Below, in pieces: positions 22,566 through 51,134 of a stretch of 64,000 nt of DNA (within the stretch, counting starts at the first letter, position 1; each line of letters starts with the position of its first letter). Location of the stretch: assembly GCA_028275925.1 (NCBI GenBank), contig JAPWTS010000001.1:37473-101472 (forward strand), read 5' to 3'. A program made the translations under genes and the position numbers. This DNA is from Thermofilales archaeon. Lineage in GTDB: Archaea > Thermoproteota > Thermoprotei > Thermofilales > Thermofilaceae. The notes under the pieces were generated by a model. It ran no database searches. It was given only the letters and a program-made list of their open reading frames with translations, and was not told where the DNA came from.

Positions 22566-22662
<97 letters not shown>

Positions 22663-45406: not shown

Positions 45407-46690
45407 TCAGCGTTGAGTCAGTAACCGGTATGGGGCTCCCGAGCCCCTTGAGCAGCCGCCGGGGCATACTTGTAGGACGACTGCGCCTGAGGGGTTTTTC
45501 GCGTAGCTTTCCACCGCGGCACTGCACTCTTCGGGCCCCACCGCAACCTTAACTTTGCTCTCGGGCGCCGCTCTCAGCGGCTCGTCCGGTAAGTCTTCTA
45601 GGACGACTCTAGACCACTTAGCGAGCTCCACGAGTTCGTGAGCGGTGATCGTCGGCGCGTGATCCTCCTTCCGCGCTACGCACGCGGTGACGACCACCGT
45701 CTCCTTACCCGCGGCGAGCTTAACGTGAGGCTTGAGGAAGCGCGCCGCCTCGGGGAACCTCAGCTTGACCCACCTCTCCTCAGCCGAGCTGAAGGGGATC
45801 AGGCCCTCCTCGCTGGGCGCTAGCGCTAAGGGATCTACCACCTCCACCTCTCTGAAGCCCAGCTCCTTGAGCAGGGACACGAGCTGACCCGGCCTCACCC
45901 CCAGAGCTTCCGCCGCCGCTTCCAGCGCTAAGCGCTCGGCGACGACCCTTCCGCCGCGTTTAGCCAGCTCGAGCGCCCCCTCGACGTCGCTCCTGTACTT
46001 AAGCGCCGAAACGGGGCAGTACGCAGCGCAGAGCCCGCACCTGATGCATCCGGCCTCCAGGAACGGTAGCTGCGCTGGCGTGGTCACGATCACGCGGTAA
46101 CCCCTGTAAGCCTGCGTGAGCGCGTGAACCCCCAGCAGCGCGCAGAGGTCGACGCACCTGCCGCACACGATGCACTTACCCGTATCCAGCTTCAGGAAGC
46201 CGTCGTCCAGCACGAGGTCGGCGACCTTCTCGTACTCGAAGCGGCGCTCGTACCTGAGCGGTGGGAAGCCGGCAGCCAGAGCCTTCAACACGCGCACGAG
46301 CTCGTCCACGCTGGCCGGGCACCCCCTCACGTAGCTGTCCACTTTGATCACTTGGTGCACGGGGACGGCGTCCATGTAGCCGTCCTTCACGTACTCCTCG
46401 ATGCGTAAGCCGAGCTTGTAGCCTAGGGTCGAGGTTTCGCCGAGGAGCGCGCAGCTGCCTAGGGCCACCACGAACTTCGCCTTTTCCCTTATCTTCTTCA
46501 CTTCTTCGACGTCGCGCGTGGTAATAGCGCCCTCTACGACCGCCACGTCGTACTCGGTGTCTGCGGAGAGCCCCAGAAGCGGTTCCCTCACGATCTCGAT
46601 ACCGCTCTCCCCCGCCAGCTTGTGCAGCTCGTTAACTACCCTGTACCGGCACCCTTCGCACGACCCGAAGCCGAAGAACGCGACCTTCAT
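45407..46690 (-). CDS. [NiFe] hydrogenase small subunit fused to ferredoxin and an [FeFe]-hydrogenase-like H domain
   Basis: A 427-residue three-part protein. Part 1 (1-150) is the [NiFe] small-subunit N-domain with proximal-cluster cysteines C11 and C14 (CEGC), C80 (GSCALLGE) and C124 (RGCPAS). Part 2 (165-235) is a ferredoxin with two four-cysteine sites (C173, C176, C179, C183; C215, C218, C221, C225). Part 3 (250-427) follows the [FeFe] hydrogenase large-subunit core: RPGQLVSLLKELGF, the L1-like FSSAEERWVKLRFPE (300-314), L2-like TACVARKEDHAP with C337, ITAHELVELAKW, and L3-like VCPGGCSRGSGAP with C409 and C413. L1 cysteines are absent. Last gene of the operon; ATG 46690 follows GGTGGGCGGG. 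Role: electron transfer, perhaps a second catalytic or cluster site. Confidence 0.88.
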   Translation of the reverse strand: MKVAFFGFGSCEGCRYRVVNELHKLAGESGIEIVREPLLGLSADTEYDVAVVEGAITTRDVEEVKKIREKAKFVVALGSCALLGETSTLGYKLGLRIEEYVKDGYMDAVPVHQVIKVDSYVRGCPASVDELVRVLKALAAGFPPLRYERRFEYEKVADLVLDDGFLKLDTGKCIVCGRCVDLCALLGVHALTQAYRGYRVIVTTPAQLPFLEAGCIRCGLCAAYCPVSALKYRSDVEGALELAKRGGRVVAERLALEAAAEALGVRPGQLVSLLKELGFREVEVVDPLALAPSEEGLIPFSSAEERWVKLRFPEAARFLKPHVKLAAGKETVVVTACVARKEDHAPTITAHELVELAKWSRVVLEDLPDEPLRAAPESKVKVAVGPEECSAAVESYAKNPSGAVVLQVCPGGCSRGSGAPYRLLTQR

Positions 46691-46700
46691 CCCGCCCACC

Positions 46701-47987
46701 TTAGTGGACTGCGCATGGCAAGCAGGGGTCGTAAGCGCGAACCAGCGCGGCGACGAGATCCTTCACTCGCGCTTCATCGATCCCCTTGCTTAAAGCCCAC
46801 GATACGAGCGCTTCTCCCGCAACCTCTATATGCCTAGCATTCATCACGGTGGGAGTGATGACGTTCGCGTACTCTAGCTTGCCATCCCTCACCCTGTAGT
46901 GGTGGATGAGCACTCCTCTCGGCGCTGTCGCTAAGCCCACCCCTTCACCGCTCTTCTCAGGCACCGTTCCCTCGTGGAAGAAAGCGACGCCGCTCCTTAT
47001 TCTGCTCGCCAGCTCCAAAGATTTCTCGGCCAGTAAGCCGGAAAGGTAGGCCACCTCCACGTACTGGGCCTTGACGTTGTCGAAGGGGTTTGAGAAGTCC
47101 ACGCCTAAAGTTTTGATCAGCTCCCGCGCTTCGCTCGCCAGCAGCGTGAAGTAGGCCTGCATCCTGGCCCTCGAGCCTACGTAGAAGGGCTTCCCCCGGT
47201 ACAGGGCTATTTTCGCGTTCGAATGAGGCAGCTTGCGCTCCTCGATAACCTCCCCGTACCTTTCAGCGCTAACTACGAAGCCGTCGGAGAACGCTAGCTC
47301 GTTGGAGAACATCGGGAACTCCTCTCTAGGAGGTTTGAGTACGCAGTAAGTCGGCGCCGGGTCCTCAAAGCCTTGCGCGATAGGCTTCCAGATCTCGGCC
47401 AGGCTGCCGGCCAGCTCGTAAAGCTCTTTGGAGACGCGGGCCATTTCCCTGCCGACGTACTCCAGCTCAGACTTAGTAATCGGCTTACCGTGGCTCGCCA
47501 CGCCCAAGCTGGGGGTGTGGATGAAGCGCCCGCAGATCCTCCGGTAAGCTTCGAGGATCCTCCTGTTGATGTCCATCATCCTGGCGAACAGCTGTGGATG
47601 GGATTTGGAAAACTGCACCACGTTGCCGTCGCCGGTGTAGTCCGGGAGCGCCATGAGGACGTGGACGAAGTTGTTTTGAACGTTCTCGAAACCTTTAGCC
47701 AACTCTCTCAAAGCTTTCACTTCCGGTTTCGGCTCCACACCCAGCGCCTTCTCGACAGCCTCGATCGAGCACGTTAAGTGGACCACGCTGCAAACGCCGC
47801 ATATCCTGCTCATCACGTGCGGCGCGTAGACGGCCGGCCGCCCCTTCAGGAAGCGCTCGAAGAACCTTGGATCCTGCGTCGCCCCGAAGTCGACGCGCAC
47901 GGTGGCTTGTTCCTTCTCGATGTGTACGTTGACTTTGCCGGCAACCGCCGGCACTTCCTCGATCGTCAACTTCAGCGTCTCAGCCAC
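46701..47987 (-). CDS. [NiFe] hydrogenase large (catalytic) subunit without C-terminal extension
   Basis: Carries the Ni-Fe active site that splits or forms H2. The 428 residues have the N-terminal ligand motif RICGVCSVVH (C63, C66) and the C-terminal DPCLPCAVH (C422, C425), giving all four Ni/Fe cysteines. The protein ends at that His, which is where other large subunits are cut by a maturation peptidase; no propeptide is encoded. Overall pattern (GFENVQNNFVHVLMALPDYT; GDGNVVQFSKSHPQLFARMM; THYR-like IHHYRVRDGKLEYANVITPT) is that of cytoplasmic group 3-type enzymes (MvhA/HoxH-like). It overlaps the NuoG-like gene by 8 nt and precedes the small subunit by 10 nt. Confidence 0.95.
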   Translation of the reverse strand: MAETLKLTIEEVPAVAGKVNVHIEKEQATVRVDFGATQDPRFFERFLKGRPAVYAPHVMSRICGVCSVVHLTCSIEAVEKALGVEPKPEVKALRELAKGFENVQNNFVHVLMALPDYTGDGNVVQFSKSHPQLFARMMDINRRILEAYRRICGRFIHTPSLGVASHGKPITKSELEYVGREMARVSKELYELAGSLAEIWKPIAQGFEDPAPTYCVLKPPREEFPMFSNELAFSDGFVVSAERYGEVIEERKLPHSNAKIALYRGKPFYVGSRARMQAYFTLLASEARELIKTLGVDFSNPFDNVKAQYVEVAYLSGLLAEKSLELASRIRSGVAFFHEGTVPEKSGEGVGLATAPRGVLIHHYRVRDGKLEYANVITPTVMNARHIEVAGEALVSWALSKGIDEARVKDLVAALVRAYDPCLPCAVH

Positions 47988-48639
47988 GGCCCGCCACCCT
48001 TTCAGCCACTTTTTTAACGGTTGCGAAGCCGGGCGCCGAGTTCCAGTAGATTTCCGCCTTGCTTACGACATCCTTCACGTCGAAGCCGAGCTCCTTGTAG
48101 CGGGCGAAGGCCCGCTCGAGGACGTCCTCCCTCGTGATGGGGCCCCTGCAGCCCCAGCACTCGCCCCCGCTCACCAGGCACTCGGCGTTGCACCCCGACT
48201 GCGCGATCATGCCCAGGCACAGCTCGCCTTTGAGCAGGAGGCACTCGCTGGGGGGCAGCGGGCACTCCGAGCACACCGGTATGCCGTCCACGAGGAGCTC
48301 CTTCGAAAGCTGGACGAGGGAGCAGGAGCTCTTCCTCTCGCAAGCCCAGCACTCTATCCTGTGGAACTTGAGCAGGAGCTCGAAGTTGACCCTCCGCATC
48401 TCCCAGAGGTCGGGCGTGCTGGCTAGGAACTCCTCGTCCCTGTACACGCGGTAGTTGCAGGAGGGGAAGAGCCTGCCAGTCGGGGTTTTCACGAGGCAGA
48501 GCCTGCAGCTGGAGCCTTCGTACAGCCCCGGCACGACGCACAGCCGCGGTATCTCCACTCCAGCCTTCTCAGCCGCTTCCAGCACGGTGGTTCCCGGCTC
48601 CACCTCCACGACCCTCCCGTCGATTTTAACTTTCACCAT
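47980..48639 (-). CDS. NuoG/HoxU-like iron-sulfur subunit with [NiFe] small-subunit-type C-terminus
   Basis: A 219-residue electron-transfer protein. The N-terminal [2Fe-2S] ferredoxin is marked by VEPGTTVLEAAEKAGVEIPR and cysteines in RLCVVPG, SSCRLCLVK and FPSCNYRV. Then comes the His-Cys3 motif of NuoG, HRIECWACERKSSC. The last third is unusual: CSECPLPPSECLLLKGELCL, GMIAQSGCNAECLVSGGECW and GCRGPITREDVLERAF recall the C-terminal cluster region of group 3 [NiFe] small subunits (CLGPVTRxGC...CxGCRGP type). The protein therefore seems to combine the N-part of a HydA/HoxU protein with ligands that the fused small subunit lacks. It lies between NuoF-like (6 nt upstream) and the large subunit (8-nt overlap). 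Confidence 0.88.
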   Translation of the reverse strand: MVKVKIDGRVVEVEPGTTVLEAAEKAGVEIPRLCVVPGLYEGSSCRLCLVKTPTGRLFPSCNYRVYRDEEFLASTPDLWEMRRVNFELLLKFHRIECWACERKSSCSLVQLSKELLVDGIPVCSECPLPPSECLLLKGELCLGMIAQSGCNAECLVSGGECWGCRGPITREDVLERAFARYKELGFDVKDVVSKAEIYWNSAPGFATVKKVAERVAGRG

Positions 48640-48645
48640 TCCGGA

Positions 48646-50619
48646 TCACCCAGCGCCCGAAACCTTGTAGACAGCCTTCACGGGGCAGACCGCGTAGCAG
48701 ACGCCGCACTTTACGCAAACGCTCTCGTCTATCCTGTACTTCCCGCCCTCGGTCTTCGATATCGCGCTAGCTGGGCAGTTCAGCGCGCACTGCCCGCAGG
48801 CGATGCACTTCTCCTCGTCTATTCTGTACGTGATCAGCGCTCTGCACACGAGCGCCGGGCACCGCTTCTCTCGAATGTGAGCGAGGTACTCGTCCATGAA
48901 GTACCTCAGCGTGGAGAGAACGGGGTTCGGCGCCGTCCCGCCGAGCGCGCATAGGCTCGCCGACCTCACGGTCTCCGCCAGCTGCCTCAGTACCTGAAGG
49001 TCCTCCTCCGTGCCCTCGCCCCTCGTGATCTTGTCGAGGATGCTCCACATGACCCTCAGACCGACCCTGCACGGTATGCACTTGCCGCACGACTCCGCCG
49101 ACGTGAAGGTGAGGAAGAACTTGGCGACGTCGACCATGCAGTTCTCGTCGCCTATAACCACTATGCCGCCGCTGCCCATGATCGCACCGGCGCTCTGCAG
49201 GGTCTCGTAGTCGAGCGGGAGGTCGAGGAGGCTTGCGGGGATGCAGCCGCCGGAGGGCCCACCGACCTGAACCGCTTTCACCCTAACCCCCTCGGGCGGC
49301 CCCCCAGCCAGCTCCTCAACGAGGGTCCTGATGCTCGTCCCGATGGGGACCTCGTAGGCCCCAACCCTCTTCACGGCGCCCGTCACGCAGAACATCTTCG
49401 TGCCCTTCGTCTTCTCCGTGCCGACCGCCGCGAACTTCTCCGCCCCCTCCGCCATGATGGTTGCCGCGTGCGCCAGCGTCTCGACGTTGTTAATGGCGGT
49501 GGGCTTGCCCCACAAACCCTTCTCTGCCGGGTAGGGCGGCCTCTGCCTCGGCCAAGCCCTCTTGCCCTCGATGGCGGCGATCATCGCGGTCTCCTCCCCG
49601 CACACGAATGCTCCAGCACTGAGTATCACTTCGATGTCGAAGTCGAAGCCCGAGCCGAGTATGTTCTTGCCCAGGAGCCCGTAGCGCCTAGCCTCCTCCA
49701 CGGCTTTCTGCAAACGCTTCGCCATCAGCGGCTTCTCCGCCCTCACGAATACGTAGCCCTGGTTGGCGCCCACCGCGTAGCCGGCTATCGTTAAACCCTC
49801 GATGATCCTGAAGGGGTCGCTCTCCGCCAGGAGCCTGTTCATGAACGCGCCGGGGTCGCCCTCGTCGGCGTTCGCTATGACGTACTTCGGCGTCGCTTTC
49901 TGCTGGCGCGTAATCCTCCACTTCATCCCCGTGGGGAAGCCAGCTCCACCCCTCCCCCTCAAACCGCTCTTCAGAATCTCCTCGATCGTCGCCTCGGGGC
50001 CCAGCTTGAACGCCCTGCTCAAGCCCCTGTAGCCGCCGCTGGCCACGTACTCCTCCAGCGACTCCGGGTTCACTACCCCGCAGTTGCGCGAGACCCACTT
50101 GTACTGCTTCGCCCAGAAGCCCAGCTCGCTGAGCAGGGGGACCTTGTCCTCCCCCTTCGCCGCACCCGTCTTCTCCTTAAGAGCGAAAGCCCCGCCGACG
50201 TCGCGCTTTACGAAGTACTCCTCGAGGATGCGCGGCACGTCGCTCGGCTTCACGTTCGCGTAGATCGCGGTGGGCATCCCCTTCGCCGCGAGCTCCAGCC
50301 ACGGGTCGATGAAGTCCAAGCCGTAACACCCGGAGATCGCTACGGTCGCCTCCAAGCCAATTTTCTTGACGGAGTCCTCGACCGCGCGGTACACGGCCTC
50401 GGCGCCCATCGCCAGCGTGCAGCTCGCCATCGGCACTTTGATCTTCGCGCCCTTCTCGCCGTACCGCAGCTCCTCAAGCCTCCGGCGCCTCAGCTCCCGG
50501 CACCGCTCGTCGTCGTGGCAGAGCGGGCCGGAGAGCCTGCACTCGATGTAGTCGGGGCAGGGGTTCTCGAGCGAGTGCGTGCACTTCTCGCAGCACCTGT
50601 CGAGCAGGGTCCACGTCAC
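48646..50619 (-). CDS. NuoF/HydB-like NAD(P)-linked flavoprotein subunit with C-terminal ferredoxin
   Basis: Diaphorase subunit that exchanges electrons between NAD(P)H and the iron-sulfur chain. The 657 residues show an N-terminal Cys-rich stretch (CCEKCTHSLENPCPDYIECR, residues 9-28), a thioredoxin-like region with most cluster cysteines lost, the FMN/NADH site SGLRGRGGAGFPTGMKW and NADEGDPGAFMNRLL, GAFVCGEETAMIAAIEG, the [4Fe-4S] site SAESCGKCIPCRVG with a later Cys in SLCALGG, and a C-terminal 2x[4Fe-4S] ferredoxin (CIACGQCALNCP; CVKCGVCYAVCP). This order equals HydB of electron-bifurcating hydrogenases and HoxF/NuoF. Its start overlaps the NuoE-like stop by 4 nt. Confidence 0.95.
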   Translation of the reverse strand: MTWTLLDRCCEKCTHSLENPCPDYIECRLSGPLCHDDERCRELRRRRLEELRYGEKGAKIKVPMASCTLAMGAEAVYRAVEDSVKKIGLEATVAISGCYGLDFIDPWLELAAKGMPTAIYANVKPSDVPRILEEYFVKRDVGGAFALKEKTGAAKGEDKVPLLSELGFWAKQYKWVSRNCGVVNPESLEEYVASGGYRGLSRAFKLGPEATIEEILKSGLRGRGGAGFPTGMKWRITRQQKATPKYVIANADEGDPGAFMNRLLAESDPFRIIEGLTIAGYAVGANQGYVFVRAEKPLMAKRLQKAVEEARRYGLLGKNILGSGFDFDIEVILSAGAFVCGEETAMIAAIEGKRAWPRQRPPYPAEKGLWGKPTAINNVETLAHAATIMAEGAEKFAAVGTEKTKGTKMFCVTGAVKRVGAYEVPIGTSIRTLVEELAGGPPEGVRVKAVQVGGPSGGCIPASLLDLPLDYETLQSAGAIMGSGGIVVIGDENCMVDVAKFFLTFTSAESCGKCIPCRVGLRVMWSILDKITRGEGTEEDLQVLRQLAETVRSASLCALGGTAPNPVLSTLRYFMDEYLAHIREKRCPALVCRALITYRIDEEKCIACGQCALNCPASAISKTEGGKYRIDESVCVKCGVCYAVCPVKAVYKVSGAG

Positions 50620-51134
50620 TTCGCGCCACCCCTCTCCTGCCTGCGGTACCGCTCGATGAGCGCGCGCAGCGTGCGCGGGTTAGCCCTCCCCACGATCTCG
50701 TTGCTGCCGTCCGGCTTCTGGACGACGACCACGGGGGCTAGGCCGCAGCACCCGAAGCAGCGGGCTTCCTCGACGGAGAACATCCTATCTTCGGTGGTCT
50801 TCCGGCCCGCCTTCAAGCCGAGGAAGGTGCGCAGGAACTCGATGTTCAAGCTGTTGCCTCGAAGGTGGCAGGCCGTGCCCATGCAGACCAGGATCCGGTA
50901 CTTGCCGATCGGCTCCAAGCTGTACTGGTGGTAGAATGTGGCTACACCGTACGCCTGGGCGAAGGGGACCCCAACGTACTCAGCAGCCCTTCTTATCCCC
51001 TCAGGCGGCAAATAGCCGTAAACAGCCTGAACCCTCCTTAGCGCTTCAAGTAGGCCGTAGGGAGCTTTGGGAACGCCCTCGAACACTTTATCGGGTAGAA
51101 CGCCAACCTCATCGCTGCCCTCCAGCTTCCCCAT
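50616..51134 (-). CDS. NuoE/HydC-like [2Fe-2S] subunit
   Basis: Thioredoxin-fold [2Fe-2S] protein of 172 residues that pairs with the NuoF-like flavoprotein. It starts with the helical part (LLEALRRVQAVYGYLPPEGI; VGVPFAQAYGVATFYHQYSL) and holds the cluster cysteines in VCMGTACHLRG and ARCFGCCGLAPVVVV. The order and spacing C-x4-C...C-x3-C fit NuoE/HoxE/HydC. First gene of the operon, with a TATA-like CTTTAAAG 23-30 nt upstream of the ATG. Confidence 0.95.
   Translation of the reverse strand: MGKLEGSDEVGVLPDKVFEGVPKAPYGLLEALRRVQAVYGYLPPEGIRRAAEYVGVPFAQAYGVATFYHQYSLEPIGKYRILVCMGTACHLRGNSLNIEFLRTFLGLKAGRKTTEDRMFSVEEARCFGCCGLAPVVVVQKPDGSNEIVGRANPRTLRALIERYRRQERGGAK

What the first reader, a model, noticed from the sequence alone, without database searches (positions are those of the whole stretch)
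45407..46690. [NiFe] small subunit fused to an [FeFe]-hydrogenase-like catalytic domain
The protein starts as a [NiFe] hydrogenase small subunit (CEGC, GSC, RGCP), passes through a two-cluster ferredoxin and ends in about 180 residues that track the [FeFe] hydrogenase core motif by motif: RPGQLVSLLKELGF, an L1-position segment, TACVARKEDHAPTITAHELV at L2, and VCPGGCSRGSGAP at L3. The two hydrogenase classes are evolutionarily unrelated, so a single chain joining them is remarkable. The flanking genes encode NuoE, NuoF and NuoG-like subunits, exactly the partners of bifurcating HydABC enzymes. I recall reports of archaeal hybrid [FeFe]/[NiFe] hydrogenases; this is probably a member, not a lone accident.
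Basis: partly seen in the sequence, partly recalled or inferred. Interest (0 to 1): 0.93.

Follow-up and report, generated by a model that had tools for sequence, protein, structure and literature searches.

The report
Two hydrogenases that swapped halves
In an archaeon, a nickel-iron hydrogen enzyme and an iron-iron hydrogen enzyme are encoded as one five-gene set in which each carries half of the other, and because the iron-iron half lacks the cysteines of its first active-site motif, hydrogen is likely handled at the nickel-iron site alone.

Summary

Brockarchaeota-type hybrids keep PC[C/S] at L1, and two genomes of that order hold an unswapped HydA-delta-L operon. The tree runs HydA, unswapped, Brockarchaeota-type, other hybrids.

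Best reading: a five-subunit, likely electron-bifurcating [NiFe] hydrogenase that works like Acetomicrobium NiFe-HydABCSL, with a remnant H-domain. Archaeal hybrid hydrogenases are in print (Greening et al. 2024; recalled, paper not held), so this is most likely a new member. Whether the half-exchange is described there could not be checked.

The parts
45407..46699 (-). hybS: [NiFe] delta N-terminal half + 2x[4Fe-4S] ferredoxin + H-domain remnant; 430 aa from GTG (427 aa from ATG at 46690)
46253..46693 (-). hybS residues 3-149: delta-type domain with the four proximal-cluster cysteines C14, C17, C83, C127
   Evidence: delta HMM 11-162; conservation
45992..46195 (-). hybS residues 169-236: HydA-type two-[4Fe-4S] ferredoxin domain; all eight Cys present in 64 of 64 sequences
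45410..45964 (-). hybS residues 246-430: shortened H-domain-like domain
   Evidence: hhalign E 1.5e-25; predicted fold
45788..45793 (-). L1 position: F303-S304 where CpI has C299-C300; Ser304 in 64 of 64, Cys at 303 in 1 of 64 (P0006)
45680..45682 (-). L2 cysteine C340 (63 of 63 rows with a residue)
45452..45466 (-). L3 cysteines C412 (61 of 62 rows with a residue) and C416 (61 of 61)
46701..47987 (-). hybL: group 3-like [NiFe] large subunit, RICGVC (C63/C66) and DPCLPC (C422/C425) both present; ends at the mature C-terminus
47980..48639 (-). hybA: HydA N-terminal half fused to delta C-terminal half, 219 aa
48283..48639 (-). hybA residues 1-119: HydA N-terminal [2Fe-2S] (C34, C45, C48, C61) and His-[4Fe-4S] (H93, C97, C100, C106)
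48046..48282 (-). hybA residues 120-198: delta C-terminal half with eight cysteines invariant in 17 sequences (medial and distal clusters, inferred)
   Evidence: SHI delta 161-241, E 2.3e-11
48646..50619 (-). hybB: HydB/NuoF-type FMN subunit with CCxxC prefix, SLBB domain, C-terminal 2x[4Fe-4S], and the B2-site residues Cys494, Thr532, His581, Cys587, Cys592
50616..51134 (-). hybC: HydC/NuoE-type [2Fe-2S] subunit

Best explanation
The 430-residue protein joins the N-terminal half of a [NiFe]-hydrogenase delta subunit to the C-terminal half of an [FeFe]-hydrogenase HydA subunit, the neighbouring 219-residue protein joins the complementary halves, and with the HydL-, HydB- and HydC-type neighbours they likely form one electron-bifurcating hydrogenase whose predicted only H2 site is the [NiFe] centre. 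Shown from sequence: the two chimeric proteins, their complementary breakpoints, the conserved gene order C-B-A-L-S, an intact [NiFe] ligand set, retained B2 residues in HydB, no L1 cysteine, and no HydG detected. Inferred: H2 is split or made in hybL. Electrons pass through the proximal cluster of hybS, and by way of the delta-type and HydA-type clusters shared between hybS and hybA, to FMN in hybB. There they would be divided between NAD(P) and ferredoxin; in a fermenting cell the likely direction is the reverse, NADH plus reduced ferredoxin giving H2. The H-domain remnant would be a structural piece or hold a plain [Fe-S] cluster on its three remaining cysteines. The exchange itself is inferred to have arisen from an adjacent HydA-delta-L operon, through circularisation of DNA and reinsertion, in one or two steps.
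For: Complementary halves: HydA profile positions 7/12-128/137 in hybA and from 135/148 on in hybS; delta profile positions 4/12-158/166 in hybS (running on to 208-210 in 5) and 154/165-233/247 in hybA; 20 of 20 locus pairs. The same with solved chains. All five genes in order in 15 of the 16 loci L021-L036; the 16th, L029, is a contig cut inside hybB. L1: Ser304 in 64 of 64 and no L1 Cys in 63 of 64. HydG 0 of 21 and 0 of 12 genome handles, 29 distinct genomes after removing repeats by hybS identity; in the control set one of 14 genomes is over the HydG cut-off. HydF over cut-off 0 of 21; HypD 19 of 21. B2-site Cys, His, Cys, Cys in 21 of 21 HydB-type proteins; PMC9304861 (passages) says that this His marks bifurcating family members. 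A. mobile NiFe-HydABCSL shows that HydABC plus [NiFe] SL without an H-cluster bifurcates (PMC8880783, passages). Ladder HydA / unswapped / Brockarchaeota-type / other hybrids with starred splits, and unswapped HydA-delta-L operons.
Against: No biochemistry. Bifurcation is inferred from HydB residues and a domain; among 21 HydB-type proteins, 3 (L024, L025, L128) lack the C-terminal ferredoxin domain, 9 have neither Cys nor Thr at the fifth B2 place (the window has Thr), and 7 lack a CCxxC near the N-terminus. Two relatives (G096, G124) have no L between A and S, so hybS/hybA can persist without an adjacent [NiFe] large subunit. HypD was not found in 2 of 21. The large-subunit tree does not place the unswapped L next to hybL with support. 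The ladder tree is unrooted, has long branches, and three rows including the window's have unusual composition. Ser at position 300 is also seen in A. woodii HydA1 and a group A6 protein (TSCSPGW), so Ser304 alone would not exclude an H-cluster; the missing cysteine at the preceding position and the missing HydG carry the argument. The genomes are incomplete MAGs, so absence of HydG is not proof.
Confidence: 0.75

Rival explanations
1. A dual-site enzyme: the H-domain still holds an H-cluster, so one complex makes H2 at two unrelated sites.
For: Fold and L2/L3 cysteines are kept. Brockarchaeota-type relatives keep PC[C/S] at L1 and the unswapped HydA keeps PAC. The recalled title of Greening et al. 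2024 says hybrid hydrogenases are active.
Against: No L1 Cys in 63 of 64. HydG not detected in any hybrid genome searched, nor in the order holding the L1-Cys forms, 0 of 12. The domain is about 185 residues and lacks the segment between L2 and L3.
Confidence: 0.07
2. A non-bifurcating, Hox-like NAD(P)-reducing [NiFe] hydrogenase that merely inherited HydABC parts.
For: Hox enzymes share the HydB/C/A core (PMC8880783 passages); some relatives lost the ferredoxin-binding domain of HydB (L024, L025, L128), and 9 of 21 differ at the fifth B2 place.
Against: The window's HydB keeps that domain, the CCxxC prefix and all B2 residues; the best solved relatives of hybB are bifurcating enzymes (9n5u_B, 7t2r_B).
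Confidence: 0.13
3. The H-domain remnant has a new catalytic role: a three-cysteine [4Fe-4S] cluster with an open iron, Ser304 and Glu307, acting on another substrate such as sulfur or polysulfide.
For: C340, C412, C416, S304 and E307 are nearly invariant across very diverse archaea, more than a dead scaffold would need; related delta/alpha enzymes are named sulfhydrogenases.
Against: Conservation may only reflect a structural or electron-relay cluster; no substrate evidence; A. mobile HydA keeps a dead-end A5 cluster at the same place.
Confidence: 0.08
4. The two chimeras arose by two independent fusions rather than one reciprocal exchange.
For: Gene fusion is common; breakpoints lie in inter-domain linkers where any fusion would be tolerated.
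Against: The breakpoints are complementary, with nearly no sequence lost (HydA 122/121, delta 156/161), and both chimeras occur together in 20 of 20 operons.
Confidence: 0.2

Closest known systems
Archaeal hybrid [FeFe]/[NiFe] hydrogenases (Greening et al. 2024, Cell 187:3357; recalled, paper not held; seen only as cited by others)
   Same: Same kind by title and recalled abstract: fusion of [FeFe] and [NiFe] hydrogenases in several archaeal orders; the relatives found here also span several archaeal orders.
   Different: Whether that work describes the reciprocal half-exchange, the L1 cysteine loss, the lack of HydG or the unswapped operon could not be checked.
NiFe-HydABCSL of Acetomicrobium mobile (NiFe-Bfu; PMC8880783, PMC9304861, passages read; 7t2r/7t30)
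   Same: Five subunits; HydABC core plus [NiFe] S and L; no H-cluster; HydB with B2 residues and C-terminal ferredoxin domain.
   Different: There HydA and HydS are separate intact proteins and HydS has one cluster; here both are cut and rejoined crosswise. hybS matches its HydA only over the ferredoxin (residues 158-242), not over the C-terminal domain.
HydABC bifurcating [FeFe] hydrogenase (T. kivui HydA1 8a6t, T. maritima 7p5h, A. woodii 7q4v)
   Same: hybA 1-120 + hybS 153-430 together cover HydA; HydB and HydC homologues adjacent.
   Different: HydA is split over two proteins, the H-domain is shortened, L1 cysteines are missing and HydG was not detected.
Soluble hydrogenase I / sulfhydrogenase 1 of Pyrococcus furiosus (delta and alpha; 9nez, 9e15)
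   Same: hybS 2-152 + hybA 120-198 together cover delta; hybL matches alpha (9e15_B, E 1.3e-49).
   Different: Delta is split; in the window the operon partners are HydB/HydC-type, so electrons would go there.

Membership tests
[FeFe] hydrogenase (active, H-cluster) | L1 cysteine ligand motif (TSC[C/S]PxW) | tested here: not met
   F303-S304 in the window; no L1 Cys in 63 of 64
[FeFe] hydrogenase (active, H-cluster) | L2 and L3 cysteines | tested here: met
   C340, C412, C416
[FeFe] hydrogenase (active, H-cluster) | H-domain fold | tested here: met
[FeFe] hydrogenase (active, H-cluster) | HydG maturase in the genome | tested here: not met
   0 of 21 and 0 of 12 handles, own genome none; the genomes are incomplete
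[FeFe] hydrogenase (active, H-cluster) | Pfam PF02906 over its cut-off | tested here: not met
   12.9 of 22.1 bits
[NiFe] hydrogenase, group 3-like | large subunit with both CxxC ligand pairs | tested here: met
   RICGVC and DPCLPC
[NiFe] hydrogenase, group 3-like | small subunit with four proximal-cluster cysteines | tested here: met
   C14, C17 (62 of 62 rows with a residue), C83, C127 (64 of 64)
[NiFe] hydrogenase, group 3-like | Hyp maturation genes | tested here: met
   HypD in own genome and in 19 of 21 handles; other Hyp genes not searched
NiFe-HydABCSL (NiFe-Bfu) | HydB B2-site residues and C-terminal ferredoxin domain | tested here: met
   Window: Cys494, Thr532, His581, Cys587, Cys592 plus 2x[4Fe-4S]; Thr is an accepted alternative at that place. 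Relatives: Cys/His/Cys/Cys 21 of 21, fifth place Cys or Thr 12 of 21, ferredoxin domain 18 of 21
NiFe-HydABCSL (NiFe-Bfu) | separate, intact HydA and HydS | tested here: not met
   halves exchanged
NiFe-HydABCSL (NiFe-Bfu) | coupled NAD- and ferredoxin-dependent H2 turnover | not testable with these tools
   needs purified enzyme
Archaeal hybrid hydrogenases (Greening et al. 2024) | one complex with [FeFe]-type and [NiFe]-type subunits fused, in archaea | tested here: met
   the definition itself is recalled
Archaeal hybrid hydrogenases (Greening et al. 2024) | phylogenetic place among the published sequences | not tested
   the paper and its sequences are not held

The most novel reading that the evidence does not exclude
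Two evolutionarily unrelated hydrogenases became one enzyme by exchanging halves: a HydA-delta-L operon of the kind still present in two genomes of the Brockarchaeota-type order was recombined crosswise in one event into [A-N/delta-C]-L-[delta-N/A-C]. The iron-iron active site then decayed step by step (PAC, then PC[C/S], then no L1 cysteine) while the nickel-iron site took over, and living archaea preserve each step.
Probability: 0.5. Interest if true: 0.8.

Novelty: new member of a known kind. Interest (0 to 1): 0.62.

Why it matters
If right, it gives a concrete route by which one class of hydrogenase replaced another inside the same electron-bifurcating machine, with intermediates to test. 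It also warns that 'hybrid [FeFe]/[NiFe]' in archaeal genomes need not mean an active [FeFe] site: in this clade the H-cluster machinery was not detected. And it gives a testable case of domains exchanged between two chains that must re-meet in the assembled complex.

Tried and rejected
Reading the H-domain as catalytic: rejected for the window clade on L1 and HydG. Reading the domain as chance similarity: rejected by the profile comparison with controls and by the fold. Reading the 219-aa protein as plain NuoG/HoxU: rejected, because its C-terminal 80 residues are delta. Fold support for that C-terminal half is inconclusive: model pLDDT is low in its first part, and the listed VIA matches span only about residues 1-125. 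Ser304 as proof by itself: rejected, since TSCSPGW occurs in A. woodii HydA1. Placing the unswapped large subunit next to hybL: unresolved. Literature searches (listings only) for a description of the half-exchange showed none, but the key paper is not held. The passages shown for my terms in PMC11094006, PMC11291895, PMC9723716, PMC12578642 and PMC8924675 held nothing on it.

Full report
What is there. The window lies in a 1.95-Mb archaeal genome (95% complete). Named relatives with the same protein include a Thermofilaceae and a Thermofilum MAG, so the host is most likely Thermofilales. hybA and hybL overlap; hybS starts right behind the stop of hybL.

The active site. In the ungapped register anchored on the [YF]P that follows L1, CpI C299-C300 correspond to hybS 303-304. 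Residue 304 is Ser in 64 of 64 sequences and 303 is Cys in one (P0006), so 63 of 64 have no L1 cysteine (one of the 64 is 99% identical to the window's). L2 C340 and L3 C412/C416 are kept. The proton-transfer Cys precedes the expected cluster-ligand Cys in this motif (PMC12138974, passages). Because A. woodii HydA1 and a group A6 protein have TSCSPGW, Ser at the second place alone is not fatal; losing both is. HydG, needed for the H-cluster's diiron site (established knowledge), was found in 0 of 21 hybrid-bearing genome handles and 0 of 12 further ones. After removing repeats by identical hybS these are 29 genomes, all MAGs of varying completeness, among them the one with the broken copy (G089). 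In the control set one of 14 genomes is over the cut-off; the output does not say which, and Thermotoga maritima is among the seven that ring. HydF over its cut-off: 0 of 21; the weak matches occur in all 14 controls too. HypD, for the [NiFe] site, is in 19 of 21. hybL has both ligand pairs and is the only match to itself at E 1e-6 in its genome.

The crosswise partner. hybA residues 1-120 match HydA 3-122 (E 6.8e-21) and residues 120-198 match SHI delta 161-241 (E 2.3e-11). With the family profile, hybS 2-152 matches delta 2-156 and hybS from 156 on matches HydA from 121 on; of its three HydA stretches two are significant (7.2e-29, 6.8e-5) and the L2 one is not. The breakpoints are thus complementary, with almost nothing lost. 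With profiles built here from 34 bacterial HydA and 10 archaeal delta proteins, the same pattern holds in 20 of 20 hybS/hybA pairs. In 15 of the 16 loci L021-L036 the five genes stand in the same order; the 16th, L029, is cut inside hybB. Both unswapped forms are widespread: HydA N-terminus plus ferredoxin lie on one chain in HydA, in a NuoG (7q5y_A) and in a formate dehydrogenase (6tg9_A), and delta is continuous in the 10 archaeal references. The exchanged form is therefore read as derived.

Spread and steps. Profile searches gave 63 proteins; names and loci point to Thermofilales, Desulfurococcales, Sulfolobales, Wolframiiraptor, Archaeoglobales, Njordarchaeales, Odinarchaeota and other Asgard archaea. 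In the phylum survey 19 of 398 genomes had a match, one of them (G089) broken by stops. A further search with the G130 protein found 12 hybrid-type proteins. Six, one of them named Brockarchaeota, keep PC[C/S] at L1 and six do not. In two genomes of that order (G095, G116; 4 of 12 genomes there had any match) HydA (L1 SPACPAA), delta and L are intact neighbours. In G095 no HydB/C was found within the 14 kb fetched; in G116 the contig ends 0.75 kb upstream of HydA. HydG was not detected there either (0 of 12). A tree of the ferredoxin plus H-domain (59 rows, part of what I had) puts bacterial HydA, the unswapped HydA, the Brockarchaeota-type and the other hybrids in that order, each split starred (97/98, 100/99, 100/99). 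A 101-row tree without the unswapped ones agrees. The trees are unrooted and branches are long. The large-subunit tree groups hybL with G130's at SH-aLRT 93 (not starred) but leaves the unswapped L unresolved.

How it could have happened (inferred). From A-delta-L, the blocks A-N, A-C, delta-N, delta-C+L are reordered to A-N, delta-C+L, delta-N, A-C. A circular delta-L piece integrating inside hydA, or excision of the A-C/delta-N stretch as a circle and its reinsertion behind L, gives both fusions and the observed order.

How it likely works. Of the five B2-site residues of bifurcating HydB, four (Cys, His, Cys, Cys) are kept in 21 of 21 HydB-type proteins compared; the fifth is the accepted Cys or Thr in 12 of 21, the window included; the C-terminal ferredoxin domain is in 18 of 21, the window included. 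PMC9304861 (passages) says the His is absent from homologues that do not bifurcate. A. mobile NiFe-HydABCSL, with HydABC whose H-cluster is replaced and with [NiFe] S and L, reduces ferredoxin with H2 only if NAD is present (PMC8880783, passages). The window complex likely works like that enzyme. It is not a member in the strict sense, because its HydA and HydS are not separate intact proteins. hybA carries 16 cluster ligands invariant in 17 sequences. The H-domain remnant is likely structural or holds a dead-end [Fe-S] cluster like A5.

Known or new. Archaeal hybrid hydrogenases are in print (Greening et al. 2024; cited in PMC11406978, PMC12578642, PMC11803613 and PMC13104023, passages). I could not read the paper and recall only its title and abstract. 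The window protein is most likely a member. I do not know whether the half-exchange, the L1 loss or the unswapped operon are described there; the listings of my searches showed no other paper on them in the held library.

Noticed in passing
46701-46760: hybL ends exactly at DPCLPCAVH, with no C-terminal tail for a maturation protease, in the Thermofilales loci and L024/L025; the other hybrid large subunits listed keep 4-10 residues.
   Followed up: partly
L126:2591-7197 and L125:1-3091: In G096 (C-B-A-S) and G124 (contig starts inside B, then A-S) no large subunit stands between A and S. G096 has one distant large subunit on another contig; G124 has one on another contig and a canonical delta plus large-subunit piece about 3-5 kb downstream.
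   Followed up: partly
L127:7646-11814: G089, same genus as G096, holds a copy of hybC-B-A-S with stops and frame changes, apparently decaying. Described only.
   Followed up: no
L148:3834-7470 and L149:6186-9865: Unswapped, adjacent HydA-delta-L operon (genes overlap in L148), H-domain with PAC at L1, in genomes where HydG was not detected; its function is unknown.
   Followed up: partly
L024, L025, L128 hybB: HydB-type subunit without the C-terminal ferredoxin domain, with Cys/His/Cys/Cys of the B2 site still present.
   Followed up: no
L031:293-2363 and L032:177-2247: Wolframiiraptor genomes carry a canonical delta-L [NiFe] pair about 3 kb from the hybrid operon.
   Followed up: no
22569-22662: tRNA gene of 94 bases on the minus strand, possibly with an intron.
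   Followed up: no
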